From: Pseudomonadota bacterium
Lineage (GTDB): Bacteria; Pseudomonadota; Gammaproteobacteria; Steroidobacterales; Steroidobacteraceae
Length of the DNA stretch: 64,000 nt
Direction: 5' to 3'
Assembly (NCBI GenBank): GCA_018241505.1
Contig: JAFEDS010000005.1
Coordinates: 434,001 to 498,000 of the forward strand
Below, piece by piece: positions 8,011 through 35,132 of this stretch. Position 1 is the stretch's first letter. Every line of letters starts with the position of its first letter. The notes below the pieces were generated by a model, which did not search any database, was not told the DNA's origin, and worked only from the letters and a program-made list of their open reading frames with translations. Made by a program: the position numbers and the translations under genes.

Positions 8011-8012
8011 TG

Positions 8013-8846: not shown

Positions 8847-8858
8847 CTGAGCCGGCCT

Positions 8859-9407: not shown

Positions 9408-9416
9408 GAGTGGTAC

Positions 9417-11354: not shown

Positions 11355-11383
11355 CTCATGTCTCCAAAAGGAATTCTTGATTG

Positions 11384-13662: not shown

Positions 13663-13682
13663 GGCTGATCTACCTCGTAACG

Positions 13683-14051
13683 TCAGGCCATGACCAGCTT
13701 GGACACGGCTTCGAGCATGACGGCGGGTTGGAAGGGCTTGGTAATCCAGGCCTTGGCGCCGGCGGCGCGGCCTTCCTGCTTCTTGTCCTCGCCGGCCTCG
13801 GTCGTCAACATGATGACGGGCGTGAACTTGTAGTTGGGATGCTTCTTCACTTCCTTCAGGAAGCCGATGCCATCCAGTACCGGCATGTTGACGTCACTGA
13901 TGATCAGGTGAATGCGCTCGCCATTCAATTGCGAGAGTCCTTCTTGACCGTTGGCCGCTTCGACCACTTCGTAGCCGGCCCCGCGCAAGGCGATACCCGC
14001 CACGGTGCGCACGGAGGCCGAGTCATCCACCAACAGAATTCGTTTTGCCAT
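13683..14051 (-). CDS. cheY: CheY-type single-domain response regulator
   Basis: 122-aa stand-alone receiver. It has the acidic pair Asp9-Asp10, phospho-acceptor Asp53 (ISDVNMP), Thr83/Thr84 and Lys105 (TKPF), so it should be phosphorylatable by the adjacent CheA. No output domain, as expected for a flagellar- or pilus-motor regulator. 20 nt upstream of the STAS gene. No cheZ is in the operon, so dephosphorylation must be intrinsic or handled elsewhere. Confidence 0.93.
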   Translation of the reverse strand: MAKRILLVDDSASVRTVAGIALRGAGYEVVEAANGQEGLSQLNGERIHLIISDVNMPVLDGIGFLKEVKKHPNYKFTPVIMLTTEAGEDKKQEGRAAGAKAWITKPFQPAVMLEAVSKLVMA

Positions 14052-14062
14052 GTCTGCTTGCT

Positions 14063-15055: not shown

Positions 15056-15264
15056 TACATCCACTGCCAACACGAGCCGTGACTCCGCCACGAAACCGGT
15101 GATCGAGGTTGATGGACGCAAGCGACTGCTGGCGCATGACTTCACGACACTGAGGACAACTCATGGAGTTCAGTATCGTCCAGCGCGCGGCGGCCTGAAG
15201 TGGCCTATTCGACATTTTCCACACAACAGGTGACTGAAAACGCAGCATTGCTGCGTCGCGGCAG

Positions 15265-16656: not shown

Positions 16657-16666
16657 CACTCTCCGG

Positions 16667-18943
16667 TCAGAACTGGTGCTGCAGCGACACTCCGACGGTG
16701 CGGGGCGTGTTCACGGCAATGCGCCGGGTGGTGGGAAGGTCGGCTGCAATCGCCACCGGCAGCGCGGTCTCACCTATCTTATTGAACACGTTGTCCAGGT
16801 ACAAAGAAGCCTTCCAGGCGGCCGGGGTCTCGAGACCGATGCGCAGGTTCATCAGCCCAAACCCATCGTAGTGATAGTAGGGGCTGGTGCGGTCGTACAG
16901 GGCGTTGGCGCCGTCGCGATCGGTGAAGTCGATTCGCGCAAACCCGGAGGTGTTCCCCATGACGGTCCGCTCGTACTCGCCGGAGATCGCCGCCGACCAG
17001 CGAGGAACATCGGTGAGACGGTCGCCCTTGCGGGCACTCGAGCCGGGAATCGCATTGCCGAGCGTCGCATCGGTATAGCTGCCCGAGGCAGTGAGCGTCA
17101 GGCCGTCCACCGGCACGTATGAAACCTCCAGCTCGCCACCCTTGCTGCTGGCCTTGCCGAAGTTGGCCGTGATGTTGAATCCGCAGCCGAGCACGATCTG
17201 CTGTTGGACCGCGGTCCAGTCGATGTAATAGACGGCACCGTTGACGGTCAGGCGCCGGTCCAGCCAGCGGGATTTGCCACCGAGCTCGTAGTTCCACAGA
17301 TGGTCGGATTTGTACTGGGTCAACTGGCTCTCACTCAGACCCAGCTTCTGCACATCCGGGCCGCAGACCGAAGCCGGCGCGGGATTGTTGGGACCGCCCG
17401 GCCGGTAACCCTTGGACGCGGTCACATAGACCATGTCATCGCCACTGAATGAATGGGCCAGGGTAACTTTTGGATTCGCGCCTGTGTCGCGCGAGTCACT
17501 GCCGTTGATGGTGGAGCCGCCGTTGAGGACGCCTTCGCCTGTCTGGAGGAAGGTTTGATCGACCCTGAAGCCGCGAACGCCGGCCGTAATCTTCACAATG
17601 TCGGGGATGTCGTAGGAAGCCTCACCATAGACGGCATATTCGCGCAGGCTCGCGTTTCGGGTACCGCCGTAGATAATCTCGCCGCCGAATGGATCCCCGA
17701 ACGCGGCCTGGTAGCCAGGGGTATCCGCAATCGAAGATGACAGCGGCGCCTGCACGTAGTGATAGAAGAGGCCGCCCGTGGCCTGGAAAGGCCCCTCGAA
17801 GGTCGAAGTGAACCGCAGCTCCTGCGTCCACTCCTTGTTGCGATAATCGCCGTGCATGGACACGGGGTACACCGAGTTCTGCGGTACCGGCGAGAAGAAG
17901 AAATACAGAACGTTGGAGGCGTCCTCGTTGATGACAATATCGCGGTCGTAGTAGGACGTGGATGACAGCAGCTCGAACTGCGGTAACGTCTCGCGCACCG
18001 TGACATTGCCGATCCAGGTCTTCTGGGTCGTGGGTTCGGCGGTATCCCGTGCCTGGATCAGGTTGCCGAAGCTGCCTTGCGGTGAATCGAAATTGAAGGG
18101 GCCGCCCAGGCGTTGTTCCTGGAATATCAGCGACGGCGTGATGGACAGATTCGAGGTCGCATCGATCTTCACTACGGCACGCACACCGGAGGTGTTTTCG
18201 GTATTCACATTGCGCACGACGCCGGCTGTCGGGTTGACGGCCAGGTAGTTGTTGGGATTGATGTTGTAGCGATCAATGAAGCCGTCGTTGTGGCGATAGA
18301 AGGCGGAGAGCCGGCCCGCAATCGAATCGGTGATGGGCACGTTGAGGGTGCCGGTGGTTTCGAGGTTCGGGCCACCCCCGTCCGTATAGGAGATCTGCGA
18401 GCCCACAGTTGCACTGAAGCGGGTGGTATCCGGCTGCGTCGTTACGTACTTGACGGTGCCGCCCATGGAGCTCGATCCGTACAGCGTGCCTTGGGGACCG
18501 CGCAAAACTTCCACTCGCGCCAGATCGAAGAGGGCAGGGTCGACAACGCCGCGAGCGGACAGCAGGGCCGCGTTGCTCGATGCCTGTATCGGGGTGTCAT
18601 CGAGGTAGTAGCCCACCGTTGCGGTGGTCCCTGCAGTCGATGAGATACCGCGCATGATCAAGATGTTCTGGCCGGGGCCGGAGGAAACGACATTCAGGCC
18701 CGGCACTTCGCGTGACAGATCCTTCAGGCTCGTGATGCCCATGCGCTCGATGTTGGTGCTGTCGAGGGCGGTGACACTCAACGGGACGGTCTGGAGATTT
18801 TCAGTACGCCGCTGCGCAGTCACAACGACTTCCTGAACGCCCGGGGTGCTGTTGTCTTCCGCGGCCAACGCGGTGCCGCCCACTGCCGTGCCCAATAGAA
18901 CGGCCGCCAGACCGCCGTACGAACTGACTCCGACCGACTTCAT
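16667..18943 (-). CDS. TonB-dependent outer-membrane receptor (siderophore/vitamin-type architecture)
   Basis: 757 aa. Signal peptide to about residue 28, TonB box QEVVVTAQ at 37-44, plug with GYYLDDTPI and the VEVLRGPQGTLYGSSSMGG signature, then a beta-barrel ending in an aromatic residue (LQHQF). Pumps a ligand across the outer membrane using TonB/ExbBD energy. I chose the ATG at 18943 because GGGGA lies upstream; a TTG ten codons earlier is possible. Coupled to the APC permease downstream and divergent from a cupin-type regulator, so the ligand may be an amino-acid-like compound (inference). Confidence 0.93.
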   Translation of the reverse strand: MKSVGVSSYGGLAAVLLGTAVGGTALAAEDNSTPGVQEVVVTAQRRTENLQTVPLSVTALDSTNIERMGITSLKDLSREVPGLNVVSSGPGQNILIMRGISSTAGTTATVGYYLDDTPIQASSNAALLSARGVVDPALFDLARVEVLRGPQGTLYGSSSMGGTVKYVTTQPDTTRFSATVGSQISYTDGGGPNLETTGTLNVPITDSIAGRLSAFYRHNDGFIDRYNINPNNYLAVNPTAGVVRNVNTENTSGVRAVVKIDATSNLSITPSLIFQEQRLGGPFNFDSPQGSFGNLIQARDTAEPTTQKTWIGNVTVRETLPQFELLSSTSYYDRDIVINEDASNVLYFFFSPVPQNSVYPVSMHGDYRNKEWTQELRFTSTFEGPFQATGGLFYHYVQAPLSSSIADTPGYQAAFGDPFGGEIIYGGTRNASLREYAVYGEASYDIPDIVKITAGVRGFRVDQTFLQTGEGVLNGGSTINGSDSRDTGANPKVTLAHSFSGDDMVYVTASKGYRPGGPNNPAPASVCGPDVQKLGLSESQLTQYKSDHLWNYELGGKSRWLDRRLTVNGAVYYIDWTAVQQQIVLGCGFNITANFGKASSKGGELEVSYVPVDGLTLTASGSYTDATLGNAIPGSSARKGDRLTDVPRWSAAISGEYERTVMGNTSGFARIDFTDRDGANALYDRTSPYYHYDGFGLMNLRIGLETPAAWKASLYLDNVFNKIGETALPVAIAADLPTTRRIAVNTPRTVGVSLQHQF

Positions 18944-18988
18944 GTTGTATTTCCCCGACAAGCTGATGCGCAACCACAGCGCCAGCCG

Positions 18989-20039: not shown

Positions 20040-20049
20040 GGATTCATAA

Positions 20050-20061
20050 GGTAGCGCTACC
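20050..20061. promoter_or_regulatory. Palindromic operator, copy 1 (GGTAGCGCTACC)
   Basis: Perfect 12-bp palindrome 21 nt before the GH3 start. With one flanking base it reads GGTAGCGCTACCA. It resembles XylR/LacI-family sites from xylose regulons (recalled: the Xanthomonas xyl-box TGGTAGCGCTAACA and a similar Caulobacter motif). Two further copies sit at 24953 and 33079. Confidence 0.7.
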
Positions 20062-20081
20062 ATCGCTTGGCAGGGGCGTCG

Positions 20082-22679
20082 ATGAATCCAGTGGCAGTGT
20101 GCATTCCGGGTCTGTTGGCCATCGCGGCCTCGGTGGCGGATGGCCAGGCGCTCTCCTTCGAAGCGCGCGCCTCCGCTCTGGTCCGGCAAATGACGCTGCC
20201 GGAGAAAGCCTCGCAGCTCGTCAACCAGGCTCGGGCAATCCAGCGCCTGGGCGTTCCCGCCTACGACTGGTGGAGCGAATCTCTGCACGGCGTGGCTCGG
20301 GATGGCACCACGGAATTTCCGGAGCCGATCGGACTGGCGGCCACATTTGATCCCGCGGCCATCCACGACATGGCTCAGGTCATCGGCATTGAAGGCCGCA
20401 TCAAACACGTGCAGGCCGCAGCCCGAGGCCATTCCAACATTTTTGAAGGATTGGATTTTTGGGCGCCCAACGTGAACATCTTCCGCGATCCCCGCTGGGG
20501 ACGGGGGCAGGAAACGTACGGCGAGGACCCGTATCTGAGTGGCCGGTTGGCCGTAGGGTATGTCACCGGCCTGCAAGGAAACGATCCCAAGTACTACCTT
20601 GCGATTGCGACCCCGAAGCATTTCGCCGTCCACAGCGGTCCAGAGCCGACACGGCATTTTACGGACGTGGATGTGAGCCGGCACGACCAGGAAGACACCT
20701 ATCTGCCGGCATTCCGTGCGGCTGTGGTTGAAGGACACGCGGGCTCGATCATGTGTGCTTACAACTCGATCAATGGAGAACCGGCCTGCGCCAATCGATT
20801 TCTGCTGCAACATACCTTGCGCGGTGCGTGGCAGTTCCAGGGCTACGTAGTCTCCGATTGTGGCGCCGTACGGGACATTTTCAGCGGGCATCACTATCGA
20901 CCCACGCAGGCTCAGTCCTCGGCGATCTCGCTGCAACGTGGCATGGACAACGAGTGCGTGGACTTCCTCGACCCGGTTGTGGACGATCATGACTACCGGC
21001 CCTATATCGAGGCCGTCCAGGGCGGCTATCTGTCCGAGCAGTCGATCGACCTGGCGCTGAATCGCCTGTTGGTTGCTCGGATGCGCTTGGGTATGTTCGA
21101 TCCTCCCGCGCAGGTGCCGTATTCGAAGCTGGACCCAGGCCTGCTCGACAGTGCCCCGCATCGGAGCATGGCGCGAAACCTGGCGGAAAAGTCCATGGTG
21201 CTCCTGCAGAACGACGGCACCTTACCCCTGCGAAACGTCAAACGGATCGCTGTAGTGGGACCCCTGGCCGAACAGACGGGCGTTCTGCTGGGCAATTACA
21301 ACGGCATTCCAACTCACACCGTCAGCGTGCTGGAGGGACTCAAAGCGGAATTCCCCAACGCGCGGATCGACTTCGTGCCCGGGACTCAGTTTCTGTCTAC
21401 GCGCGGCGATCCAGTGCCCGCAGGGATGCTGACAACAACAGATGGCAAGCAGGGTCTGACGGCCGTGTATTCCAGCGGAACGGGCATCGGCGCGGAGCCC
21501 ACCCCTGTGCTCACCCGCGTCGACCCGGAAGTCAGCGTCAAGAACCTTCCCAGTGAGCTGCAGGGGAAAGACGCTTTCAGCGTGAAATGGAGCGGCAACC
21601 TGAAGTCGCCCGTCACGGGTGATTATCTGTTGGGAGTGCAAGCCGAAGGCTTTGTGCAGGTGGTGCTCTTCGGGCAGCCCTTTGTTCAAAGCTTCGGTCG
21701 GGAAGGCAACCTGCGCCGTATTCACCTCGAGGCAGGTCACTCACTGCCTATCGAGATCCGCTACGGCCGGACGCCTTCGAAGACGCACCCGGATGTACGG
21801 TTTATCTGGGCCAAGGCTGCCCCTGGGACGGACCCGGCTGCCGTTGCCGCCGCTAGGAATGCCGACGCGGTTGTTGCCGTGGTCGGGATCACCAGTCGTC
21901 TGGAAGGCGAGGAGATGCCCGTTGACGAGCCGGGATTCATCGGGGGCGACCGCACGAACCTGGACATGCCCGCGGCAGAGGAGGAACTCCTGCACGCAGT
22001 GGCTGAGGCTCACAAGCCGCTAGTGGTCGTTCTACTGAACGGGAGCGCTCTGTCTCCGCAATGGGAGAAGGCTCACGCGAACGCGATCCTCGAAGCCTGG
22101 TACCCGGGCGAAGAGGGGGGATCCGCAATCGCCGCTACCGTGAGCGGTCGCAACAACCCCGCAGGTCGGCTGCCCGTGACGTTTTATCAGGGTGTACAGC
22201 AGTTACCGCATTTCGAGGACTACTCCATGAAGGGACGTACCTACCGGTACTTCCAGAAGGAGCCCTTGTGGCCGTTCGGCTACGGATTGAGCTATACGAC
22301 CTTCGAGTACAGCGGGTTGATGCTGCCGGCCGCGCCGCTCGGGCCGTCCGATCCGTTGAATGTGCGTGTGACGGTCACCAACACCGGAAAGGTCGAGGGC
22401 GATGAAGTCGCTCAGTTGTATCTCAAATTTCCTGACGTGGCGGGCGCACCGATCCGGGCGCTGCGCGGCTTCAAACGCATCCACCTGAAACCCGGCGCGA
22501 GACAACAGGTTGAATTCCAGCTTCAGGGCCGCGATTTGAGCATGGTGACTGACGCCGGCGACATTATCGTCGCTCAGGGAAAATACAGTTTGTCGGTGGG
22601 CGGCGGACAACCGGACACTGCGGCGCCCTCGGTGACGGGACAGTTCCAGGTGTCGCGGCCGATGGCATTACCGGAGTAA
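20082..22679 (+). CDS. Glycoside hydrolase family 3, beta-xylosidase/beta-glucosidase-like, with PA14 insert
   Basis: 865-aa exported enzyme; signal peptide about residues 1-22 (ending VADGQA). The N-terminal GH3 barrel carries RDPRWGRGQETYGEDP, the substrate-binding KH and the nucleophile Asp259 in GYVVSDCGAVRD. SDCGA and the later GGDRTNLDMP are typical of xylan 1,4-beta-xylosidase-type members. A PA14-like domain (about 420-580) is inserted in the C-terminal domain, and an FN3-like domain ends the protein. It should release sugars from oligosaccharides in the periplasm. ATG chosen over an earlier TTG. Operator copy 1 lies directly upstream. Confidence 0.92.
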   Translation: MNPVAVCIPGLLAIAASVADGQALSFEARASALVRQMTLPEKASQLVNQARAIQRLGVPAYDWWSESLHGVARDGTTEFPEPIGLAATFDPAAIHDMAQVIGIEGRIKHVQAAARGHSNIFEGLDFWAPNVNIFRDPRWGRGQETYGEDPYLSGRLAVGYVTGLQGNDPKYYLAIATPKHFAVHSGPEPTRHFTDVDVSRHDQEDTYLPAFRAAVVEGHAGSIMCAYNSINGEPACANRFLLQHTLRGAWQFQGYVVSDCGAVRDIFSGHHYRPTQAQSSAISLQRGMDNECVDFLDPVVDDHDYRPYIEAVQGGYLSEQSIDLALNRLLVARMRLGMFDPPAQVPYSKLDPGLLDSAPHRSMARNLAEKSMVLLQNDGTLPLRNVKRIAVVGPLAEQTGVLLGNYNGIPTHTVSVLEGLKAEFPNARIDFVPGTQFLSTRGDPVPAGMLTTTDGKQGLTAVYSSGTGIGAEPTPVLTRVDPEVSVKNLPSELQGKDAFSVKWSGNLKSPVTGDYLLGVQAEGFVQVVLFGQPFVQSFGREGNLRRIHLEAGHSLPIEIRYGRTPSKTHPDVRFIWAKAAPGTDPAAVAAARNADAVVAVVGITSRLEGEEMPVDEPGFIGGDRTNLDMPAAEEELLHAVAEAHKPLVVVLLNGSALSPQWEKAHANAILEAWYPGEEGGSAIAATVSGRNNPAGRLPVTFYQGVQQLPHFEDYSMKGRTYRYFQKEPLWPFGYGLSYTTFEYSGLMLPAAPLGPSDPLNVRVTVTNTGKVEGDEVAQLYLKFPDVAGAPIRALRGFKRIHLKPGARQQVEFQLQGRDLSMVTDAGDIIVAQGKYSLSVGGGQPDTAAPSVTGQFQVSRPMALPE

Positions 22680-22734
22680 CTCACGGCGCCGGCTGGCATG
22701 GGTTAACATCGCCCCCGAGGCAACGGAATACCAT

Positions 22735-24957
22735 ATGCAACAGGCGCCGTCGTCGCGCATCCAGGAGCTGATGGCCGGCGCATTGCGCCAGCACCGGGCC
22801 GGCCGCCTGGGCGATGCCGAGCGACTGTATCGCCAGGTCCTGCAGCTCGATCCTCATTTCGCCGATGCTTTGCACCTGCTGGGCGTTCTGAATCACCAGG
22901 TGGGCCGCAACGATGTCGCCGTTGAGCTCATCGGCCAGGCGATCGCGCAGAACGATCGCATGCCCGCGTACCACAATAACCTCGGGAACGCCTTCAAGGC
23001 CCAGGGCCGACTGGATGACGCTGTCAGTTCCTATGAACGGGCATTGGCGCACAAGCCGGATTATCCGGAGGCTCACTACAACCTGGGAGTGACCTTGCAG
23101 GCGCAAGGGAAACCGGATGAGGCAGCGCACTCCTACCGGCGAACCCTGGCTCTGAAGCCGAACCACGCCGCTGCCCACAACAACCTGGGAAATGCACTGC
23201 AATCCCAAGGCAGGTTGGAGGAAGCCGCAGTCGCATACCGGCACGCGTTGGCCAGCATGCCCCGCCACGTCGAAGCGCACATCAACCTCGGAAACGTTTC
23301 AAAGGCACGAGGCCAGCCGGACCAGGCATTGTCGTTTTACGAGCAAGCGCTGGCACTGCAGCCGGATTCGGCAGAAGCCCACAACAACGTGGGCCTGGTA
23401 CTGCTGGAGAAGAGCGAGTTGGTCGAGTCGGCGACCGCATTCGGACACGCCTTGCGTCACAAGCCCGAATACGCCGAGGCTCACTACAATCTCGGCAACG
23501 TTCTGCAGCAGCAGGGAAAGACAGCAGAGGCCGCCGCCGCTTACAAGCGTGCGCTCGAGCTGAAACCCGATTACGCCGAGGCACGCCTGGGGTTGGCCAT
23601 TGCAGTCATTCCGGTCTTCTCGGACACGGAGGCCGAAAGTCGGAATGCGGACGCTAATTTCGCACGCTCAATAGATGAACTGGCCGCCTGGGACCGGGCT
23701 AACCCAGGGCTGTTGGGAAGAGCGGCCGGAACCACCCAGCCATTCCTTCTTGCCTACAGGCCTGCTGATGTGAGCGCTTCGCTGAGCCGCTATGGTGACC
23801 TCATCTGCGCCGCCGCAGCCGAATTCTGGCACGGCAACCGCAAGCCAACTCATGCAGCGCGGGACCGTGTCCGTCTGGTGATAGTGAGCGGCCAGGTACG
23901 CCACCGACATCCTGTCTGGGACGTAGTGTTGCGTGGCCTCGTGTCGCATTTGAATCGAAACAGGTTCGAGCTGCTGCTGTATCACACCGTTGCGCTCGTC
24001 GACGATGAGACGGAATGGGCGCGGGCACACGTAGATCGTTTCGTGCAAGGGCCATTGCCAACTCGAGCCTGGCTCGCTGAGCTCGCTCGGGACCAACCTG
24101 ATGTTGTATTCTATCCGGAAGTCGGGATGGATCCTGCCACGTGTGCCTTGGCTGCGCTGCGCCTGGCGCCGCTGCAGATAGCCGGTTGGGGCCATCCGGT
24201 CACCACCGGACTGCCCACCATGGACCTGTTTGTGTCGGGCGAACTGCTCGAGGGCCCGGGTGCCGAGCGGCACTATCGCGAGAAACTCATCCGCTTGCCG
24301 GGAACTGGTGTTTGCACCGAGCTGGCGGCGATAGATCCTCAGCCCTGGCAGGGACCGCAGTCGAGCTCCGACAGGGTCCGCTTCACACTGTGTCATCAGC
24401 CGATCAAATTTGATCCGGCCGACGATGTCATTCTGACGCGCATTGCGAAGGCGGTCGGGCGCTGTGAGTTCTGGATTGCCGCGCCGGACAGGCTTGCGTG
24501 GACCGGTCCGCGGCTCCATGGCCGGCTCGCCGCCGCCTTTCGGGCGGCAGGGCTCGATCCCGACACCCACCTGCGGGTGCTCCCGTGGTTGCCGCGCAAT
24601 CAATTCGCAGGCTTCCTCGATTCGATGGATATTTATCTCGATTGCCCCGGCTTCTCCGGATATACGACAGCATGGCAGGCGATACATCGAGGCGTTCCAA
24701 TCGTTACTTCAGAGGGTACGTTTCAGCGTCAGCGCCTTGCGGCCGGACTTCTGCGGCAAATAGGCATTACGGACGGAATCGCCTCGAGCCACGACGAGTA
24801 CGTCAACATTGCCGTCAGTTGGGCGCGAGAGTGCCGCAGCGGTGACCGCCTGGCCCAGCGACGGGAAGCAATCAGACAGGCCGCGCGGAAAGCCGATGGG
24901 AACTTGTCCGCCGTGACTGCCTTCGAGAACGCGGTGCTGGAGCATCTGCCGCGATAG
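22735..24957 (+). CDS. TPR protein with OGT-like glycosyltransferase domain
   Basis: 740 aa. About eight tetratricopeptide repeats occupy residues 10-290 with a 34-residue period (EAHYNLGNVLQQQGK type). The C-terminal half resembles O-GlcNAc transferase/SPINDLY family GT41 (LQIAGWGHPVTTGLPTMDLFVSG, YLDCPGFSGYTTAWQAIHRGVPIVTSEG). It would transfer a sugar to proteins recognised by the TPR array; donor and target are unknown. It has no signal peptide, so it is cytoplasmic. 55 nt after the GH3 gene on the same strand. Its TAG stop forms part of operator copy 2. Confidence 0.85.
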   Translation: MQQAPSSRIQELMAGALRQHRAGRLGDAERLYRQVLQLDPHFADALHLLGVLNHQVGRNDVAVELIGQAIAQNDRMPAYHNNLGNAFKAQGRLDDAVSSYERALAHKPDYPEAHYNLGVTLQAQGKPDEAAHSYRRTLALKPNHAAAHNNLGNALQSQGRLEEAAVAYRHALASMPRHVEAHINLGNVSKARGQPDQALSFYEQALALQPDSAEAHNNVGLVLLEKSELVESATAFGHALRHKPEYAEAHYNLGNVLQQQGKTAEAAAAYKRALELKPDYAEARLGLAIAVIPVFSDTEAESRNADANFARSIDELAAWDRANPGLLGRAAGTTQPFLLAYRPADVSASLSRYGDLICAAAAEFWHGNRKPTHAARDRVRLVIVSGQVRHRHPVWDVVLRGLVSHLNRNRFELLLYHTVALVDDETEWARAHVDRFVQGPLPTRAWLAELARDQPDVVFYPEVGMDPATCALAALRLAPLQIAGWGHPVTTGLPTMDLFVSGELLEGPGAERHYREKLIRLPGTGVCTELAAIDPQPWQGPQSSSDRVRFTLCHQPIKFDPADDVILTRIAKAVGRCEFWIAAPDRLAWTGPRLHGRLAAAFRAAGLDPDTHLRVLPWLPRNQFAGFLDSMDIYLDCPGFSGYTTAWQAIHRGVPIVTSEGTFQRQRLAAGLLRQIGITDGIASSHDEYVNIAVSWARECRSGDRLAQRREAIRQAARKADGNLSAVTAFENAVLEHLPR

Positions 24958-24964
24958 CGCTACC
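24953..24964. promoter_or_regulatory. Operator copy 2 (GATAGCGCTACC)
   Basis: Shares TAGCGCTACCA with copies 1 and 3; one base departs from perfect symmetry. It overlaps the stop codon of the TPR gene and lies 39 nt before the halogenase start, so it could control an internal promoter. I see no clear -35/-10 pair next to it. Confidence 0.6.
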
Positions 24965-25003
24965 ATTCGCAGGCTACTGCAAGCCCAGAGGTATTCAACG
25001 GCC

Positions 25004-26509
25004 GTGCCGAACGAACCGATTCGCAGCGTCGCGATTGTAGGTGGGGGAACCGCCGGATGGATGACGGCTGCGATCCTGTCGAAGTTTCTCAACGAGGGGC
25101 CTTGCCGTATCCGCCTGATCGAGTCGGCCGACATCGGGACTATCGGGGTCGGTGAGGCGACGATCCCTCCGATCATTGATGCCATCCGGCTGCTCGGTAT
25201 CGATGAGAACGACTTGATCCGCAAAACGCACGCAAGCTTCAAGCTCGGCATTGAATTCAAGGATTGGACGCGGCCCGGACATTCCTACATCCATCCGTTC
25301 GGGCCAACAGGTTTGCCTCAGCAGGGGGTGGATTTTTCGGCCTACTGGTTCAAACACCGCGAGCGCGGCGAGGCGAGCCCACTCGAAGAGTATTCGCTGC
25401 AGGCGGCCGCGGCGCGTTTGGGAAAGTTCATGCGGCCGATCAACGTCACCAAGTCGCCCGTGGAAACCATTACGTATGCTTTGCATCTCGACGCCTCGCT
25501 GTTCGCAGCGTACCTGCGGACCTACGCAGAAGCGCGTGGCGTCACCCGGACGGAGGGCAAACTCGAGAGCGTGGCGCTTAGGCGCGAGGACGGTTTTATT
25601 GAGTCACTCGTGCTCGAGAGTGGCGAGCGGATCGAGGCGGATTTCTTTATCGACTGCACCGGCTTCCGAGGTGTGTTGATCGAAGGCGCGTTGCAGACTG
25701 GATATGAGGACTGGACGCGCTGGTTGCCTTGTGATCGCGCTGTAGCCGTCCCATGTGAACGGACTGGCCCGTTTTCCTCGCATACCCTTGCCACTGCGCG
25801 GGATGTCGGCTGGCAGTGGCGGATTCCTCTGCAGCATCGGGTCGGGAACGGCTATGTGTATTGCAGCAACTTCATCCAGGACGATGAGGCGCAGCAGAAG
25901 TTGATGTCGAGCCTCGAGGGCCGCGCGTTGCGTGAGCCACTGCGACTGCGATTCACGACGGGCCGGCGGCGACTGAGCTGGAACAAGAACTGTGTCGCGA
26001 TCGGGTTGGCCGCAGGATTTCTCGAGCCGCTCGAATCCAGTGGTATCTACCTGATTCAACGCGCCATCGCGCTGCTGTGGCAATTCTTTCCGGATCGCCG
26101 TTTCAGTCAACCGGACATCGATCGCTACAACAGCCAGGTTGCCTTCGAGTACGAGCGCATCCGCGACTTCCTGATCGTCCACTACAACAAGACGCAGCGT
26201 GAGGGTGAGTTCTGGCGGTACTGCCGCAACATGGAGTTGCCCGACAGCCTGAAGGAGCGCCTGGATCTCTTCCGCGGTTACGGCCGTATCGTCCGCGATG
26301 AAAACGAGCTGTTCAATGTGCAGAGCTGGCTGTTCCTGTTCGACGGTCAGGAGGTTCGTCCCGAAGGCTATGACCCGCGGGCTGACACGTTGAGCGCGGA
26401 AAAGGGCCGCAGAGCACTCGACAATATACGGGCGGTCGTTGCCATGTGTGCTGCCGACATGCCATTGCACGAAGCTTTCATCGCCCAACACTGTGCTATG
26501 ACATCCTGA
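25004..26509 (+). CDS. Flavin-dependent tryptophan halogenase family protein 1
   Basis: 501 aa. N-terminal FAD-binding GGGTAGW (13-19); conserved Lys80 in SFKLG, equivalent to PrnA Lys79, which forms the haloamine or positions HOX; the halogenase signature WxWxIP intact at Trp270-Pro275; Glu344 in LEPLESSG, equivalent to PrnA Glu346. All catalytic hallmarks are therefore present and it could halogenate an electron-rich aromatic. Reduced FAD must come from a reductase not seen here. GTG start; AGAGG is about 12 bases upstream. Homologues in TBDT loci of Xanthomonas and Brevundimonas have shown bromination in vitro (recalled), but their in vivo substrate is unknown. Confidence 0.92.
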   Translation: MPNEPIRSVAIVGGGTAGWMTAAILSKFLNEGPCRIRLIESADIGTIGVGEATIPPIIDAIRLLGIDENDLIRKTHASFKLGIEFKDWTRPGHSYIHPFGPTGLPQQGVDFSAYWFKHRERGEASPLEEYSLQAAAARLGKFMRPINVTKSPVETITYALHLDASLFAAYLRTYAEARGVTRTEGKLESVALRREDGFIESLVLESGERIEADFFIDCTGFRGVLIEGALQTGYEDWTRWLPCDRAVAVPCERTGPFSSHTLATARDVGWQWRIPLQHRVGNGYVYCSNFIQDDEAQQKLMSSLEGRALREPLRLRFTTGRRRLSWNKNCVAIGLAAGFLEPLESSGIYLIQRAIALLWQFFPDRRFSQPDIDRYNSQVAFEYERIRDFLIVHYNKTQREGEFWRYCRNMELPDSLKERLDLFRGYGRIVRDENELFNVQSWLFLFDGQEVRPEGYDPRADTLSAEKGRRALDNIRAVVAMCAADMPLHEAFIAQHCAMTS

Positions 26510-27512
26510 GCAGGCGCAGGATCCGCGCCCGGATTTTCGAGTAGTTGGCCGGTTTGAGCGGGCCGAGGAGCCCGTGATGTTGCGTGGGCAGGTGTGCGAG
26601 CGGATGGCCGTCGCTGCGGAAAACATAATGGTCGAAGAAGGCCTTCCACGCCTGCCGTTCCGCGGGCGGCCGCTCGGCGATGGTGATCATGCTGAAGAGC
26701 AGGGCGGTGTAGGGCAGGTCAGGCCCGGCGCTCGAGGCGTCCCACCAGTAGTTGACCAGCCCGTTGAATGGCGCCGTGGATTCGACCTGGTGCCACCAGA
26801 GCTTCGGCAGATACAGAGCATCGCCCGGTTCGAGTTGCGCGTGCAGCGCCTGGTCGCGGATTTGCGCAAATAACGGGAACTGCGCGTCGCTGCCCGGCGG
26901 CGCGGATGCGGCCAGGCTGACCGGAGGTCCGGACATGGTGTGGTCTATGGGTCCCACGTAGAGCTTGCCAATCAGCTCCGGTGCATAGAGGGTGAATCGC
27001 CGCTGTCCGGCGATGACACAGGCGAGGTTGTCGAACGTATCGTAATGGCTCGAAATGTTGGCTGGGGTCCCCAGCCACAGCCGCGGGCCGGCTCCGAAGT
27101 CTCCCAGCGACAACGAATTCCCCACTCCGAAGCCAGGAAGGCAGTCAGCCGTCGGCAGGGCTCCCACGTACACCGATGGTCCCCCTGGGCGATCGGCGGA
27201 CTCCAGGGCGCAATCCACGGCTTCCATGAGCTTCATGATGCGCCGTTCGAAGTTGAATCCGTCCAATCCCGGGTTGTAGTAGTACTTACCTTCGATGGCG
27301 CGGTCCCCGAAGAACACTTCGACGGGTTTACCCGCATCGAGCTTGGCGAGATAGTCCCGCAGCGCGCCCGCGGAGGCGCGCGCTGCCTTCACGACCGGCC
27401 ATTCGGCAACGAGTCCGCGGACGACGACCGGCCGGCAGCCCGGAATGATTTCCTGTTGGAATCGCGCCGGTGTCAGATCTCCGGCCGCGATCTCGGTAGG
27501 TGCATGAGGCAT
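26496..27512 (-). CDS. Cupin-like JmjC-type protein
   Basis: 338 aa, Cupin_8/JmjC fold of Fe(II)/2-oxoglutarate-dependent oxygenases. The facial triad appears complete: His156-x-Asp158 (SSHYD) and His241 (LWWHQVES). Such proteins hydroxylate proteins or small molecules, and they recur beside SapC and halogenase genes in TBDT loci. ATG at 27512 is chosen; the frame is open far upstream but that overlaps SapC. Its 3' end overlaps the halogenase-1 gene tail to tail by 14 nt. Last gene of the TBDT operon. Confidence 0.85.
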   Translation of the reverse strand: MPHAPTEIAAGDLTPARFQQEIIPGCRPVVVRGLVAEWPVVKAARASAGALRDYLAKLDAGKPVEVFFGDRAIEGKYYYNPGLDGFNFERRIMKLMEAVDCALESADRPGGPSVYVGALPTADCLPGFGVGNSLSLGDFGAGPRLWLGTPANISSHYDTFDNLACVIAGQRRFTLYAPELIGKLYVGPIDHTMSGPPVSLAASAPPGSDAQFPLFAQIRDQALHAQLEPGDALYLPKLWWHQVESTAPFNGLVNYWWDASSAGPDLPYTALLFSMITIAERPPAERQAWKAFFDHYVFRSDGHPLAHLPTQHHGLLGPLKPANYSKIRARILRLLRMS

Positions 27513-27547
27513 GGAAAGGCTCGAAACTCCCGCAGGTCGGGAGAATA

Positions 27548-28282
27548 TCAGCCCGAGGCGGAGGCGCGCGTCCCCGCCAGGCCCGCGGTGGCATCCAGCA
27601 GCCGCGCATTCTTCTTCCGTGCCAGGATCGCGACCTGCTTCTGAGAAGCGATCATGTAATGGATCAGGCGCAGATAGCCGCGCCTGTAGAGCTCCACGAC
27701 GGCCTCGTTGCCCAGCCTGAGCAACATTTCCTGGTCTATTGTGTAGAGGCCGACACATCTGCGGATGCTGCCGTCACTCAGCTCCACCTCGACATCGACC
27801 GGCTCAATGAGCTTCAACTCCAGCAACCGGGCGATGAACAGCTTGGTCATCTGGACGCCGGCCTCGAGATCCTGGAAGGCCCAGATGATACTTTGCAGAT
27901 AGCGGGTTGGCTTGCCTTGATCCGTGAACAGGGACTTGCCGTCTTCGGCTCCGACGCGGGGGTCATCCAGGTCGATCGCCACGTCCGGGCCCTGAGCGAA
28001 GAAGGGTCCGCGCTGCAGCATCAGGGGCCGGTAGAACTCCGGATCCTGCCACTCGTGGAGGAACAGATTCTCGCCCTCGTCAAATCCGAGAACCGCGCCA
28101 CAATAGAACTGGCCCGTTTGGGCGTCTTTCGAAAAGAGAATAGGATAGTGGACCAGAAGCTGACCAAACTCCTTGACGATCACTTGTACGAAGCGCCGGT
28201 TATCGCCATAAGCAGCCGATGAGCGCCCGTCGACCTTCAAGTCGCGGTGGGTTTCTCTGTTGAGAGGAACGATCTGCGTCAT
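27548..28282 (-). CDS. SapC family protein
   Basis: 244 aa, SapC family, named after a Campylobacter S-layer-associated gene. Recognisable by HYPILFSKDAQTGQFYCGAVLGFDEGENLFL and the central YRPLMLQRGPFF. No signal peptide or catalytic motif is evident; biochemical role unknown. It repeatedly occurs with TBDTs and tryptophan halogenases in Caulobacter/Xanthomonas-type carbohydrate loci. 10 nt after halogenase 2 and 35 nt before the cupin gene, so a firm operon member. Confidence 0.88.
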   Translation of the reverse strand: MTQIVPLNRETHRDLKVDGRSSAAYGDNRRFVQVIVKEFGQLLVHYPILFSKDAQTGQFYCGAVLGFDEGENLFLHEWQDPEFYRPLMLQRGPFFAQGPDVAIDLDDPRVGAEDGKSLFTDQGKPTRYLQSIIWAFQDLEAGVQMTKLFIARLLELKLIEPVDVEVELSDGSIRRCVGLYTIDQEMLLRLGNEAVVELYRRGYLRLIHYMIASQKQVAILARKKNARLLDATAGLAGTRASASG

Positions 28283-28292
28283 GTTGTTCCGT

Positions 28293-29846
28293 TCAAACCG
28301 GCTGCAGCCCGTACTGGTGGATCTTGTTCAGCAGCTCGCGGTTGGTGGGTAGCCGCGAGCGCAATTCGAAGGTCTGCCGCTCATTCTCCTGTCGCAGCCG
28401 CGCGGCGAGCAGCTCGGAATCGCGCGTATCCTCCGGCCGCACCTCGCTCTCGAATCCCATTCCGTAGAGCACGTATTGATAGCTGGCGGCCGGAAAAACC
28501 TCTTCCAGCCGGTCGAATTCATCGAAAAACCACGGCGGCCGGTATTTCCAGAGCTTCAAAAGCTCCTGCAGCCGTTGCGGAACGCTCGCCGGGTCCACGT
28601 TGTCGCGCCAGAACGCGGTATCGGTGCGCCGGGTGAGAACGTAATGCAGCTTGAGGAAATCGATGATCCGGCCCCACCGGTACAGCGTCACTTCATTGAA
28701 GCGTCTGGCCACAATGTCCATGATGTCGCGGTTGGCGGGTAGCTGCTCGGCAATCAACTTCGCGGACAGCTCGACCAGTACAATCGCGGAAGACTCCAGC
28801 GGCTCGAGGAAACCGCCGGCAAGGCCGACCGCAATGCAATTGTTCTTCCAGAAGGTCGCGCGATGACCGGAGCGGATCGGGATCTTCCGGGCCGGCAGAT
28901 CGCGATGTTGCGATCCAATGTAGCGTTGCAGAGTCTCACGCGCGGCCTCCTCGCTCGAATGGCGGCTCGAATAGACGTAACCGACTCCGCGCCGCGTGGG
29001 CAGACAGATGTCCCAGATCCAACCGGCTTCCTGTGCGGTGGAAATCGTCTGCGACGCCATAGGCGCATCGGGCGTCTCATACGGCACTTGGGACGCGAGC
29101 GCCGTATCGCAGAAGAGGACGTCGCTGCAATCCTTGAAGCCAACGCCGAGTGTCTTGCCGATGAGCAGTGCGGAAAAACCGCTGCAGTCGATAAACAGGT
29201 CGCCCGAAATCTCGCCGGCCTGCGGCGTGAGCACGCCTTCAATGTCGCCGGATTCCTTTTGGTTGACCTGCACGACGTCGGCCAGGACGTGGCGGACGCC
29301 TAGCTTCTCGGTGCAGTGCCGGGCGAGGAAGGGCGCGAATTTGCCGGCGTCCAGATGATAAGAATAGTTGGCGAGCGCCCGGTATTCCGGACTCGTGATC
29401 AGCTTCGGAGCCAACCCGTCGTCGCAGAGCAGCCCCTGGGGAGTGACAAAATCGCAGAAACTCTGGGTTGGGGCCGAGTGCATCCAATGCGGCACGAGGT
29501 TGAGCTGACTGAATCCCTGCGGAAGCATCAGCGGATGATAGTACGCATCATCCGCCGCCCCGGTGGTCCAGCCCGCGAACTTGCCTCCCTGTTTGAAAGC
29601 TGCGTCGCACTCGCGGAACAGCGCGGTCTCCGAAATGCCCATCGCCTCCAGCGAGCCCCGCATGGTCGGCCACGTGCCCTCCCCAACGCCGATGATCTTG
29701 ATGTCCGGTGACTCAATCAGCGTTACAGAGAGGCCGCCCGCTTTCATCCGAGCCTGATAGCGGGCGGCGATGATCCCAGCGGTCAGCCACCCGGCGGTTC
29801 CTCCGCCGACGATGACGACCGCTTTGAGGGGCTGTATCACGTTCAC
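28293..29846 (-). CDS. Flavin-dependent tryptophan halogenase family protein 2
   Basis: 517 aa, paralogue of the one at 25004. GGGTAGW at 14-20, Lys85 in AFKQG, Glu351 in LEPLESSA. The signature reads WIWDIC (276-281): the usual Pro is Cys and the next residues are LP, so it deviates from WxWxIP. Lys and Glu are kept, so activity is possible with altered specificity. GTG start 2 nt after the TBDT stop, so its expression is tied to the receptor. The alternative is a flavoprotein monooxygenase no longer halogenating. Confidence 0.88.
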   Translation of the reverse strand: MNVIQPLKAVVIVGGGTAGWLTAGIIAARYQARMKAGGLSVTLIESPDIKIIGVGEGTWPTMRGSLEAMGISETALFRECDAAFKQGGKFAGWTTGAADDAYYHPLMLPQGFSQLNLVPHWMHSAPTQSFCDFVTPQGLLCDDGLAPKLITSPEYRALANYSYHLDAGKFAPFLARHCTEKLGVRHVLADVVQVNQKESGDIEGVLTPQAGEISGDLFIDCSGFSALLIGKTLGVGFKDCSDVLFCDTALASQVPYETPDAPMASQTISTAQEAGWIWDICLPTRRGVGYVYSSRHSSEEAARETLQRYIGSQHRDLPARKIPIRSGHRATFWKNNCIAVGLAGGFLEPLESSAIVLVELSAKLIAEQLPANRDIMDIVARRFNEVTLYRWGRIIDFLKLHYVLTRRTDTAFWRDNVDPASVPQRLQELLKLWKYRPPWFFDEFDRLEEVFPAASYQYVLYGMGFESEVRPEDTRDSELLAARLRQENERQTFELRSRLPTNRELLNKIHQYGLQPV

Positions 29847-29848
29847 GT

Positions 29849-32800
29849 TTACAGTTTAGCGCGAACTCCTAGCGTGAACGAGCGGCCGTAATCCACCACG
29901 TTCAAGGTCTGGTTATCGAAGCGGCCACGCGTGTGGTAGATATTGTCCGTGAGGTTGATGGCCTCGAAGAACACGTTGAAATGACTGCTGATGTCGTACT
30001 GAGTGCTGAAATCCAACTCGGTGTTGGCTCGCAGATACGTCGGCTCATTGGGGAATGATCCGCCGTTCTGCTCCTGACCGATCTGCAGCAACTGCTCGCC
30101 CTGCCACTGCAGCGCGAGGCGAGCCTGGAAGCCGTAGTTCTGATAGAAGGCGATGAGGTTCGCCGAATTGCCGATACCCGGGATGGCGAACTGGTTGGCC
30201 TGCAGCTTGTACGGGTCAAAATTGGCGTTGCTGTGGACGTAGGTTCCGTTGACCTGGAATCCAAATCCGAGCGGCAACATCTGCTGCCAGGTCGCCTCTA
30301 TGCCGGTCACGTTGGCAGATTCACCGTTGGTGATGGTGCTCTCCTGGAAGACCGCCAGATTACCCTTGTTGTCGAGTACGCCCGGCACGGTAAGGGGTGT
30401 CACGGTCGAGACCGGAAATTGGGTGACGTGCTTGAAGAAGCCGTCCACGGACACGTAGTCGTTCGAGGCGTAGTACCACTCGGCACCCAGGTCGAAGTTA
30501 TGCGACAGGTAGGGCTTCAGAAACGCGTTGTTGCCCTGCGCCGTGAGTGAGCTCACCCGCCCACCGTAGGTAACGCCCGGGATGAGCTGAGCGTTGTTTG
30601 GCGGACTCTCGGTCCGCGAGTAATCCACTCGGACCTTCAGGTTCGGTTGGACCAGCAGGTTGAGATCCAGCGACGGCAGGAAATAGCCGTACGAGTTCTT
30701 GGCCGAGATCGGCGAAACCGTGCCGAGATTGAAATTATAGGCCGTGGGGTCGCCCTGCGGCACCGTCAGGGCGGTGAGCGGCTGCGTGAGTCCCGCGATA
30801 TAGACGTTCGTCTTCTGGTACCGGAATCCAACCTTGCTGTTGAGGGTCATATCCCCGAGTGGGAAGGACTGCTCCGCGGTGACAAACGGGGCGTAGTTCT
30901 TGCGGTCCACATGCTGCAGGCCACCGGGATTCTGCGGTACCACCGGGTACCCGCCTGCATAATTCGGATAGCCCGAGTTCGGCTTGTAGCCCGAATTGAT
31001 GGGTTGAGTGATGAGGTAATTGAGAACGTCATACGGGTTGTACAGGTTCACTCCAGGCGGCAGGTTGCCGCCTTTGTAGCCGGGAATGAAGTTCGGCAGC
31101 GATATCGGCGTGAAAAATTTCTGCGGCAGGGCGACACCACTGCCCACGTTGTTCGAGCCCGGTCCGTAGCCCGACCAGAGCTGCCACTCGCCGTTGACCA
31201 ATGTATTTCCGGTGCTCAGGTCCCAGACATCCTGCAGGAAGTGGGCTCCGAAATTCACCTTGGTGTCTGCGTTGTGCCAGGTCCCCTCGAGCTTGACCTG
31301 GTTGATCTTGTCAGTGTTGTACTGGACAGTGATCGGAACCACGTGCGAGCCGATGATGTACGGGTCCTGCCCGAGGAAGTTCGGCGAGTAGGCATTTGCC
31401 GTCCCGGCGACCGTGTTGGGGCCGTACGCAGTCCAGTAGGGTAGCGTCTTCGGGTCATTGCCGACCACGACACCGCCGGTATAGTTGTTCGTCTTCGGGT
31501 CTCCGTTACCGTAGCCGGTGTCGACGTCGAAGGCGGTCCATGTATGGTTCGGGTTCAGATGCGCCGTGGATTGGGCGATGTCCAGCTCGCCTGTCAGGCT
31601 ATCGCTGATATCCCAGTGCACATTGAGCCCGGGGGTGTTGGTGGTGATGTAAGTCCGGTTGGCGTTGGCGTTGAAGTCCGTGGGCTGCTGAGTGGTGGTG
31701 AAGTCGGTGATCGTCCCGTTAGCGTCCTGCGTTACATTCATGCACGAGGATGGAAAGCATCCAAACCAGGTGCTGAACTGCCAGCTATCGGTAACCTCGC
31801 TATCGGACGAGTAATTGTCGTCCACCGTGATTAACAGCGTATCCGAGGGACGCCACTGCAGCGCAACCCGCCCATCCCTGCGCGTTGAGCTGGTCCGTTC
31901 CAGATACATGGCCTGGTCCTGGATGTACCAGCTCGGAAAGCTGTTGGGGGCCGTTGTGTAGTTGCCTTTGGCGTCCGTCTGGCAGGCAGGCCCTCCGGCC
32001 ATCTGGCAGGGATCCAGGAACGCGCCTTTCCAACCCACGATGTCGAAATGGTGGCCGACGATCTCCTTCTTCGTATAGTCGCCGGCGACCAGGATGCCGA
32101 ACGTATCGTCGAAGAAAGTGTCGCTGAACAGAGCCCCGCCGGCGGGCTTGACGCCGCCGTCCTTCTGAAAGTCGTTGGCGGAAACGAAAGCCCGCGCCTG
32201 CAGTCCGGGTTTGTCGAATGGCCGGGGTGACTTGATGTTGATTGTCGCGCCCACCGCGCCGGCGGAGAGGCTGTAGTCGGGCGTCTTGTGAATATCGAGC
32301 TCGCCGACGTACTCAGCGCCCAGGGCGGAGAAGTCGAAGTTCTGGCCGTTGCCCGAAGCGACCTGCCGGCCCTCGGTCAGGATCTCATTGAATTGCGTGC
32401 CGAATCCACGCACCGTGATTCCGGTCGTGGCGCCAGTAGATGTCGGGGGACCGCCGCCCGCCATATTACTGATCGAGCCCCGGTTCACCGTGACACCCGG
32501 GATGCGGCTCAGGGCTTCGCCGATCGAGGCGTCCGGGAACTGACCGATGTCCTCCGCGGAGACCGCGTCCACGACACCGACCGCCGCCTGTTTGATGTCT
32601 AATGAACGCTGTAGGGAGGCCCGGATACCGGTGACCACCACTTCCTGCAGTTCCTGCGGATTGTTGGAAGCGGAAGCAGGGCCTGTACCCGCATTGTCCG
32701 CCGGCTCGGCGGCCAGCAGCGAGCGGCCAATGGCCATGGACCCCAACGTGAAGCCTGACAGACCCGCCTTGGCAAGCGCGCCCACCCTGGAGGTGGCGCT

Positions 32801-32851
32801 TGCGGCTTTGGCTGCCTTTTGGAACGCATTCCGCCGTGTCTTTCGGCTCAT
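29849..32851 (-). CDS. Large TonB-dependent receptor, carbohydrate type
   Basis: 1000 aa, of the Xanthomonas/Caulobacter-type TBDT group. Arg-rich N-terminus with a long hydrophobic signal (to about residue 48), TonB box QEVVVTG at 69-75, plug with DIGQFPDASIGEALSRIPGV and GITVRGFGTQFNEILTEGR, which is characteristic of the group. Large extracellular loops. ATG at 32851 has AGGGGGA upstream; the longer reading begins upstream of that site. First gene of the TBDT-halogenase-SapC-cupin operon. Probably imports an oligosaccharide or a modified aromatic-sugar compound; the xylo-type operator and GH3 enzyme favour a plant-polymer product (inference). Confidence 0.93.
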   Translation of the reverse strand: MSRKTRRNAFQKAAKAASATSRVGALAKAGLSGFTLGSMAIGRSLLAAEPADNAGTGPASASNNPQELQEVVVTGIRASLQRSLDIKQAAVGVVDAVSAEDIGQFPDASIGEALSRIPGVTVNRGSISNMAGGGPPTSTGATTGITVRGFGTQFNEILTEGRQVASGNGQNFDFSALGAEYVGELDIHKTPDYSLSAGAVGATINIKSPRPFDKPGLQARAFVSANDFQKDGGVKPAGGALFSDTFFDDTFGILVAGDYTKKEIVGHHFDIVGWKGAFLDPCQMAGGPACQTDAKGNYTTAPNSFPSWYIQDQAMYLERTSSTRRDGRVALQWRPSDTLLITVDDNYSSDSEVTDSWQFSTWFGCFPSSCMNVTQDANGTITDFTTTQQPTDFNANANRTYITTNTPGLNVHWDISDSLTGELDIAQSTAHLNPNHTWTAFDVDTGYGNGDPKTNNYTGGVVVGNDPKTLPYWTAYGPNTVAGTANAYSPNFLGQDPYIIGSHVVPITVQYNTDKINQVKLEGTWHNADTKVNFGAHFLQDVWDLSTGNTLVNGEWQLWSGYGPGSNNVGSGVALPQKFFTPISLPNFIPGYKGGNLPPGVNLYNPYDVLNYLITQPINSGYKPNSGYPNYAGGYPVVPQNPGGLQHVDRKNYAPFVTAEQSFPLGDMTLNSKVGFRYQKTNVYIAGLTQPLTALTVPQGDPTAYNFNLGTVSPISAKNSYGYFLPSLDLNLLVQPNLKVRVDYSRTESPPNNAQLIPGVTYGGRVSSLTAQGNNAFLKPYLSHNFDLGAEWYYASNDYVSVDGFFKHVTQFPVSTVTPLTVPGVLDNKGNLAVFQESTITNGESANVTGIEATWQQMLPLGFGFQVNGTYVHSNANFDPYKLQANQFAIPGIGNSANLIAFYQNYGFQARLALQWQGEQLLQIGQEQNGGSFPNEPTYLRANTELDFSTQYDISSHFNVFFEAINLTDNIYHTRGRFDNQTLNVVDYGRSFTLGVRAKL

Positions 32852-33029
32852 TCGAATTTCCCCCTGCCCAGAAGATGTTGCAAACACGCACCAACGGGCC
32901 GCGCCACTTGCCTGGCATCGCCCGTTACATGAATTTCGCCTGGAACCCCCTCAACATCGTCTCTCCACGCCCAATTTGGGTGCGATGAGGTCCGATCTCG
33001 CGCATCACCAATGTCAGCGCTGTCATACT

Positions 33030-33059
33030 ATAATACTCAGCTCTCTGGCCGGAGAGCAA
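33030..33059 (-). promoter_or_regulatory. Sigma-70 promoter of the TBDT-halogenase operon with spacer palindrome
   Basis: On the minus strand: TTGCTC (33059-33054), 18-nt spacer, TATTAT (33035-33030). The spacer and the edge of the -35 box contain the near-perfect palindrome CTCTCTGGCCGGAGAG (33041-33056), a second possible operator. The AT-rich -10 region stands out from its surroundings. Confidence 0.6.
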
Positions 33060-33078
33060 GGCATCCTAGTCATTCTTT

Positions 33079-33090
33079 GGTAGCGCTATC
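33079..33090. promoter_or_regulatory. Operator copy 3 (GATAGCGCTACC on minus strand)
   Basis: Identical to copy 2 when read on the minus strand, including the following A. It lies 20 nt upstream of the -35 box of the TBDT operon, a position that would suit activation or looping rather than simple blocking. Confidence 0.65.

Positions 33091-33296: not shown

Positions 33297-35132
<1,836 letters not shown>

What the first reader, a model, noticed from the sequence alone, without database searches (positions are those of the whole stretch)
20050..33090. Operator-linked locus combining GH3, OGT-like glycosyltransferase, two halogenases, JmjC cupin, SapC and a large TBDT
Seven genes on two converging transcripts appear to form one system. 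Both halogenases keep the catalytic Lys and Glu, yet no secondary-metabolite pathway (PKS, NRPS, tryptophan genes) is present. Halogenase-TBDT-SapC-cupin linkage is known in Xanthomonas/Caulobacter relatives, but the physiological substrate is not. The GH3 xylosidase type and xylo-type operators suggest plant-derived aromatic-sugar conjugates (for example feruloyl or indolic glycosides) taken up by the TBDT, then deglycosylated and halogenated or oxidised. The OGT-like gene within the same arc is an added, unusual partner. This is the best candidate here for an undescribed pathway.
Basis: partly seen in the sequence, partly recalled or inferred. Interest (0 to 1): 0.72.

Follow-up and report, generated by a model that had tools for sequence, protein, structure and literature searches.

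The report
Halogenase cassette in xylan-uptake locus
A bacterial gene cluster that probably takes up plant xylan sugars carries, beside its outer-membrane sugar receptor, two halogen-adding enzymes, an oxygenase and a protein of unknown role; the same set is found with such receptors in different sugar contexts, which suggests a job on the receptor or the cell envelope rather than on one nutrient.

Summary
The seven genes and three operators are real. The operator (GRTAGCGCTAYC) lies before GH3, HalA and the TBDT; its seven other sites in the genome precede two GH3 genes (one behind GH67), GH31, a sugar porter, two esterases and a CelD_N protein, and relatives' modules carry xylose kinase and isomerase-type genes. 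So this is a xylan/xylose uptake (CUT-type) locus. The halogenase pair is not an oddity: TBDT-HalB-SapC-cupin-HalA is a recurrent operon; here HalA is flipped. Elsewhere it accompanies GH16 glucanase-type genes, and in 20 genomes 81 of 112 halogenases lie within 5 kb of a TIGR01782 TBDT (about 3 expected). This argues against aromatic-glycoside processing. Catalytic residues are kept; the cupin's and glycosyltransferase's solved relatives modify proteins; HalA's relatives (BrvH, Xcc4156) have open active sites, reject free tryptophan and were already proposed to halogenate peptides. The TBDT is the most economical protein substrate. That step is inference: one TBDT Trp is kept in 48 of 49 linked receptors and lost in some, not all, unlinked ones. 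I found no paper on the linkage in the open library. No chemistry is shown.

The parts
20049..20062 (.). operator AGGTAGCGCTACCA before GH3
20067..22679 (+). GH3 enzyme, xylosidase type, with PA14 insert and hydrophobic N-terminus (export likely)
   Evidence: (best NCBIfam Xyl3A, 797 bits, below its 1250 cut-off)
22735..24957 (+). TPR plus GT41/HMW1C-like protein glycosyltransferase
24952..24965 (.). operator CGATAGCGCTACCA before HalA
25004..26509 (+). HalA, BrvH/Xcc4156-type flavin-dependent halogenase; flipped relative to the usual operon
26496..27758 (-). Cupin_8/JmjC oxygenase, HxD...H triad kept; likely start at 27512
27548..28282 (-). SapC (PF07277), function unknown
28293..29846 (-). 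HalB, 2PYX-type flavin-dependent halogenase
29849..32887 (-). TIGR01782 TonB-dependent transporter; likely start at 32851
31766..31768 (-). codon of Trp374 (ORF numbering; Trp362 from the ATG), conserved in SapC-linked TBDTs; candidate modified residue
33078..33091 (.). operator TGGTAGCGCTATCT before the TBDT operon; a similar site stands before the TBDT in ten relatives' modules

Best explanation
(a) A xylose-regulator-type gene pair of transcripts for xylan: the TBDT brings xylo-oligosaccharides through the outer membrane and the exported GH3 trims them. (b) HalB, SapC, the JmjC cupin and HalA form a cytoplasmic accessory cassette that modifies an exported protein, most likely the unfolded precursor of the TBDT made from the same operon, by halogenating Trp and hydroxylating or otherwise oxidising side chains before export; the OGT-like enzyme may add a sugar to the same or another protein. 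Shown by sequence: gene set, operators, their other sites, recurrence of the operon, conserved catalytic residues, variation of cargo genes. Inferred: cellular place, substrate, order of steps, effect on transport. I put (a) at about 0.85 and (b) with the TBDT as substrate at about 0.25-0.3; the confidence given is for the whole, with (b) leading but unproven.
For: Regulon: the seven other operator sites precede a sugar porter, a GH3, a PF00756 esterase, a second GH3 (behind a GH67 gene), a SASA esterase, a GH31 and a CelD_N protein; relatives' modules hold an FGGY (xylulokinase-type) homologue in 10 and a xylose-isomerase-type homologue in 9 of 64. Cassette: TBDT-HalB-SapC-Cup-HalA collinear; 81 of 112 halogenases within 5 kb of a TIGR01782 TBDT, 2.9 expected; halogenase-linked TBDTs without SapC in several other tree lineages. 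Cargo differs: GH16 in 17, xylose kinase in 10, no overlap, of 64. Protein-acting solved relatives: JMJD7, FIH, JMJD5; OGT, SPINDLY, HMW1C. BrvH and Xcc4156: open site, no free Trp, peptide proposed (passages of PMC5945002 and PMC7336383). Gaps over 150 nt: HalB>SapC 0 of 50, SapC>Cup 1 of 50, TBDT>HalB 2 of 47, Cup>HalA 0 of 39 (ORFs taken from the most upstream start, so gaps are lower bounds). Of 79 columns conserved in 49 SapC-linked TBDTs only Trp374 is changed in both unlinked members then known.
Against: Trp374 does not track the cassette cleanly: it is kept in L218-L221, whose four genomes (one 64% complete) have no PF04820 hit at E<=1e-30, and in unlinked L217; it is lost in linked L132 and in a clade of 8 of which 4 have a halogenase within 5.6 kb; 7 of 8 HalB-less modules keep it. 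It may simply bind sugar; its topology is unknown because the model failed (pLDDT 26). 78 of 129 listed TIGR01782 TBDTs have no halogenase within 5 kb, and 31 of 112 halogenases are not within 5 kb of such a TBDT, 27 not within 10 kb. In one search the commonest single pattern is SapC with none of the other profiled genes (17 of 83 loci; the full order alone 16). 20 of 79 SapC loci show no halogenase within 7.5 kb, some cut by contig ends. HalB-less modules have a TBDT>SapC gap over 150 nt in 4 of 11, and TBDT>HalA in 2 of 6. Cytoplasmic location rests on a crude hydropathy scan in which HalB (1.83) scores above the exported TBDT (1.26). SapC gave no usable model (pLDDT 33). No halogenated protein is shown.
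Confidence: 0.4

Rival explanations
1. Small-molecule tailoring: the TBDT imports, or the cell makes, an aromatic compound (indolic or phenolic, perhaps plant-derived) that HalA and HalB halogenate and the cupin oxidises, as a signal, toxin or detoxification product.
For: BrvH brominates indole in vitro (passages of PMC5945002); the families are best known from small-molecule halogenation (recalled); esterases stand near some relatives' modules (AXE1 homologue 6, GCE 5 of 64) and behind two operator sites.
Confidence: 0.25
2. The cassette modifies another envelope protein or a peptide encoded elsewhere (a TonB/ExbBD part, a secreted hydrolase, a RiPP-like peptide); TBDT linkage reflects co-regulation only.
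For: Trp374 does not track the cassette; some SapC and halogenase loci lack a TBDT of this kind.
Against: The TBDT is the recurrent exported protein of the operon; SapC-linked TBDTs fall mainly in one clade (50 of 52; L094 and L158 lie outside it).
Confidence: 0.2
3. The 'halogenases' act in vivo as flavin monooxygenases (hydroxylases) on an exported protein, as QhpG does (recalled), rather than as halogenases.
For: Weak NCBIfam similarity of both to QhpG and GoxB, and of HalA to LodB, far below cut-offs.
Against: Lys and Glu kept in both; WxWxIP kept in HalA (HalB has WIWDIC); BrvH and Xcc4156 brominate in vitro.
Confidence: 0.15

Closest known systems
Carbohydrate-utilisation loci with TBDT (CUT loci) of Xanthomonas and Caulobacter, the xylose ones (XCC4120/CC2832, XCC2828/CC0999)
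   Same: Xylose-induced TBDTs with a palindromic motif upstream (passages of PMC1790865); I did not compare the motif letters, which the paper's text does not give.
   Different: The words halogenase, SapC and cupin do not occur in that paper's main text; here two halogenases, SapC, cupin and an OGT-like gene are in the locus and no inner-membrane transporter is.
BrvH (6frl) and Xcc4156 (6y1w)
   Same: HalA's best PDB matches (E 9.4e-154 and 2.8e-136); BrvH too has a second halogenase gene beside it.
   Different: Native substrate unknown there; 'TonB' occurs in neither main text.
2PYX tryptophan halogenase entry, with 9LTB and 9LU2
   Same: HalB's best PDB matches (E 1.3e-162 to 1.4e-129).
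   Different: I saw no functional study of these.
JmjC hydroxylases JMJD7/FIH/JMJD5
   Same: Aligned JmjC core, HxD...H triad.
   Different: Low similarity (best E 4.9e-12); Cupin_8 family; substrate unknown.
OGT / SPINDLY / HMW1C protein glycosyltransferases
   Same: TPR superhelix plus GT41-like C-terminus.
   Different: Only 43 bits on Pfam GT41; diverged catalytic part; acceptor unknown.

Membership tests
CUT-type xylan/xylose uptake locus | TBDT gene with carbohydrate-active enzyme gene | tested here: met
CUT-type xylan/xylose uptake locus | shared xylose-type operator and regulon | tested here: met
   the regulator itself was not identified
CUT-type xylan/xylose uptake locus | inner-membrane sugar transporter in the locus | tested here: not met
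   none at 20-33 kb; a Sugar_tr porter lies behind the same operator elsewhere
CUT-type xylan/xylose uptake locus | induction by the sugar | not testable with these tools
   needs RNA data
Flavin-dependent halogenases (PF04820) | GxGxxG, catalytic Lys and Glu, WxWxIP | tested here: met
   HalB lacks the last Pro (WIWDIC)
Flavin-dependent halogenases (PF04820) | halogenating activity | not testable with these tools
   assay needed
Cupin_8/JmjC Fe(II) oxygenases | HxD...H triad | tested here: met
   H238, D240, H323, invariant at 97% or more of 65
GT41 (OGT) family | TPR plus full two-lobed GT41 catalytic domain | tested here: inconclusive
   43 bits against a cut-off of 25, but the best stretch covers only profile 445-520 of 543
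TIGR01782 TonB-Xanth-Caul transporters | score over the curated cut-off, full length | tested here: met
   501 bits against 310, profile 1-867 of 868

The most novel reading that the evidence does not exclude
Many Pseudomonadota (SapC in 137 of 398 sampled genomes; not all SapC loci have halogenases) post-translationally halogenate and hydroxylate their large sugar-type TonB-dependent transporters, with a dedicated HalB-SapC-JmjC-HalA cassette acting on the precursor in the cytoplasm. This would be a new kind of outer-membrane protein modification and would give BrvH-type halogenases their missing native substrate.
Probability: 0.25. Interest if true: 0.9.

Novelty: new variant of a known kind. 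Interest (0 to 1): 0.6.

Why it matters
The native substrates of BrvH and three Xanthomonas halogenases are stated to be unknown (PMC7336383, passages). The present data give a context: a recurrent operon with a TBDT in differing sugar settings, and an economical protein candidate, down to one conserved Trp. One proteomics experiment could settle it. SapC, found in about a third of sampled genomes of the phylum, has no function assigned by the models I used.

Tried and rejected
Trp286 was dropped as a signature: it is also in half of the TBDTs without SapC or halogenase nearby. Trp374 as a strict signature was dropped. A precursor peptide inside the operon was considered and looks unlikely from gene spacing; I did not search for small ORFs.
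Full report
Observation. Searches confirm the seven genes, their strands and order. HalA and the cupin gene meet tail to tail, with overlapping ends. The TBDT scores 501 bits on TIGR01782 (cut-off 310). The OGT-like protein is a TPR superhelix with a diverged GT41/HMW1C-type C-terminus (43 bits on GT41; PDB matches to OGT, SPINDLY, HMW1C).

Operators and regulon. The palindrome GRTAGCGCTAYC lies at 20049, 24952 and 33078, before GH3, HalA and the TBDT. In the whole genome DGRTAGCGCTAYCH has 9 sites (reversed-pattern control 3). Two of them are inside this 13-kb locus (P about 1e-4; post hoc). The seven others stand before a Sugar_tr porter, a GH3, a PF00756 esterase, a second GH3 that follows a GH67 gene, a SASA esterase, a GH31 and a CelD_N protein. 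With a slightly wider pattern a site lies 66-146 nt upstream of the TBDT start in L071, L072, L136, L138-L141, L147, L154 and L155, and 76-342 nt upstream in L092, L095 and L105; none was found in other modules such as L069, L135, L146 and L159. In several of the first set another site stands before the xylose kinase or isomerase-type gene. Ten of 64 module loci hold a homologue of that kinase and nine of the isomerase-type protein. Their Pfam hits are FGGY kinase and AP_endonuc_2 'xylose isomerase-like'; the finer names are my reading.

The cassette. SapC occurs in 83 of 296 genomes of the order and 137 of 398 of the phylum. Of the 109 SapC places that one search lists outside the own genome I fetched the surroundings of 80 (L082-L161); those left out are contig-edge places and some others low in the list. 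SapC was called by my profile in 79 of the 80: 59 have a halogenase within 7.5 kb, 49 a TBDT of this type, 47 the cupin, 25 all of these with both halogenases; 20 have no halogenase. In 83 loci sorted by order, 16 show exactly TBDT-HalB-SapC-Cup-HalA, further ones contain it with extra genes, and 17 show SapC with none of the other profiled genes. In the window HalA is on the other strand with its own operator. The genome has a second module on contig C17, 30% (TBDT), 35% (SapC) and 54% (HalB) identical to this one.

Cargo. Of 64 loci with SapC and a halogenase (window included) 17 have a GH16 homologue, 19 LacI, 14 a GH3 of another kind, 11 a sugar porter, 10 the xylose kinase; the GH16 and kinase sets do not overlap (phmmer E<=1e-15 anywhere in the fetched stretch; families by Pfam). 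That GH16 means beta-glucan here is my reading. In 20 genomes 81 of 112 halogenases (E<=1e-40) are within 5 kb of one of 129 TIGR01782 TBDTs (E<=1e-90); 2.9 are expected for uniform placement. Halogenases in tandem are not independent, and one search scored at most 27 TBDT candidates a genome, so both the TBDT list and the expectation are lower bounds. In a tree of 105 TBDTs 50 of 52 SapC-linked ones fall in one clade, and halogenase-linked ones without SapC appear in several other lineages.

What the enzymes are. HalA's best solved relatives are BrvH and Xcc4156, HalB's is 2PYX. Both keep Lys and Glu; the cupin keeps HxD...H. In the passages I read of PMC7336383 and PMC5945002, BrvH and Xcc4156 have an open substrate site, do not take free tryptophan, have unknown native substrates, and a peptide substrate was proposed; BrvH has a second halogenase gene next to it. 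The cupin's nearest solved relatives are JMJD7, FIH and JMJD5, which hydroxylate proteins (recalled).

Mechanism. A crude hydropathy scan of the N-termini gives a clear export-like stretch for GH3 only (2.57); HalB scores 1.83 (its FAD-binding strand), HalA 1.32, SapC 1.31, GT 1.29, TBDT 1.26, cupin 0.11. It does not pick out the TBDT, so it is weak; the flavin- and iron-enzyme families are cytoplasmic as a rule (recalled). Gene spacing leaves little room for a precursor peptide between HalB, SapC, Cup and HalA, somewhat more after the TBDT in HalB-less modules (4 of 11 over 150 nt). I therefore place the cassette in the cytoplasm, acting on an unfolded exported protein, most economically the TBDT. 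SapC could be the adaptor that holds the precursor; that is a guess.

The Trp test. Among 49 SapC-linked TBDTs of the main clade (L158, L094 and L160 set aside before the count) 79 columns are conserved at 90% or more. Only one is changed in both unlinked members then at hand (L176, L179): Trp374, Phe in both; it is Trp in 48 of 49 linked (found after looking at Trp columns). I then added 26 TBDTs (three repeat loci already counted). Phe also in L208-L211 (same lineage as L179) and in L222, at the base of the tree. But Trp in L217 (no SapC found in its genome) and in L218-L221 (four genomes without a halogenase hit at E<=1e-30), and Phe/Tyr in a clade of 8 of which 4 have a halogenase within 5.6 kb, and Phe in linked L132. 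Five further rows (L206, L207, L223, L224, L227), near contig edges or of unclear linkage, have Trp. So the residue is a candidate, not a signature.

Literature. Ten searches of the open library listed no paper on this operon. Five papers hold both 'halogenase' and 'TonB-dependent receptor'; I read passages of one (PMC11337851), which does not concern linkage, and saw only the listing of the other four. Passages of PMC8269204 (no 'TonB') and PMC8245568 added nothing on it. Subscription journals are not held, so absence from print is not shown. PMC1790865 (passages) describes xylose CUT loci and their palindrome without halogenases. A transposon hit in a 'tryptophan halogenase' gene is listed in a Sphingomonas exopolysaccharide screen (PMC11340318, passage); I draw nothing from it.

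Verdict. An ordinary kind of uptake locus with an unexplained, widespread halogenase cassette whose neighbours' sugar type varies. The aromatic-glycoside idea is disfavoured; modification of the receptor or another envelope protein is the leading, untested idea.

Noticed in passing
L069 (G000:C17) and L070 (G000:C31): The same genome has a second TBDT-HalB-SapC module (C17), and a lone HalA-type gene (C31) in a stretch that also holds an operator site before a SASA esterase.
   Followed up: partly
L084, L106, L108, L113, L117, L159: DUF6445 (PF20043) homologues lie at SapC modules; L108 and L159 lack the Cupin_8 gene, so it may substitute for the cupin there.
   Followed up: partly
L167, L175: Four (L167) and three (L175) neighbouring halogenase genes lie beside a single TBDT without SapC.
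   Followed up: no
L139, L154, L155: TPR-GT genes (GT41 by Pfam in L139 and L155) distant from the window's recur at module loci of the genus; L071 also has a TPR-sulfotransferase near its module.
   Followed up: partly
window 16667-18973 and 15265-16659: A smaller TBDT next to an amino-acid permease gene, adjacent to but apart from this locus.
   Followed up: no
window 7000-15145: A run of minus-strand genes that look like a chemotaxis cluster (read by eye from the translations).
   Followed up: no
window 1031-6823: A bacterial alpha-2-macroglobulin of 1930 aa.
   Followed up: partly
window 33297-35048: 2-isopropylmalate synthase (LeuA, yeast-type model) directly behind the TBDT promoter region, apparently unrelated.
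   Followed up: no
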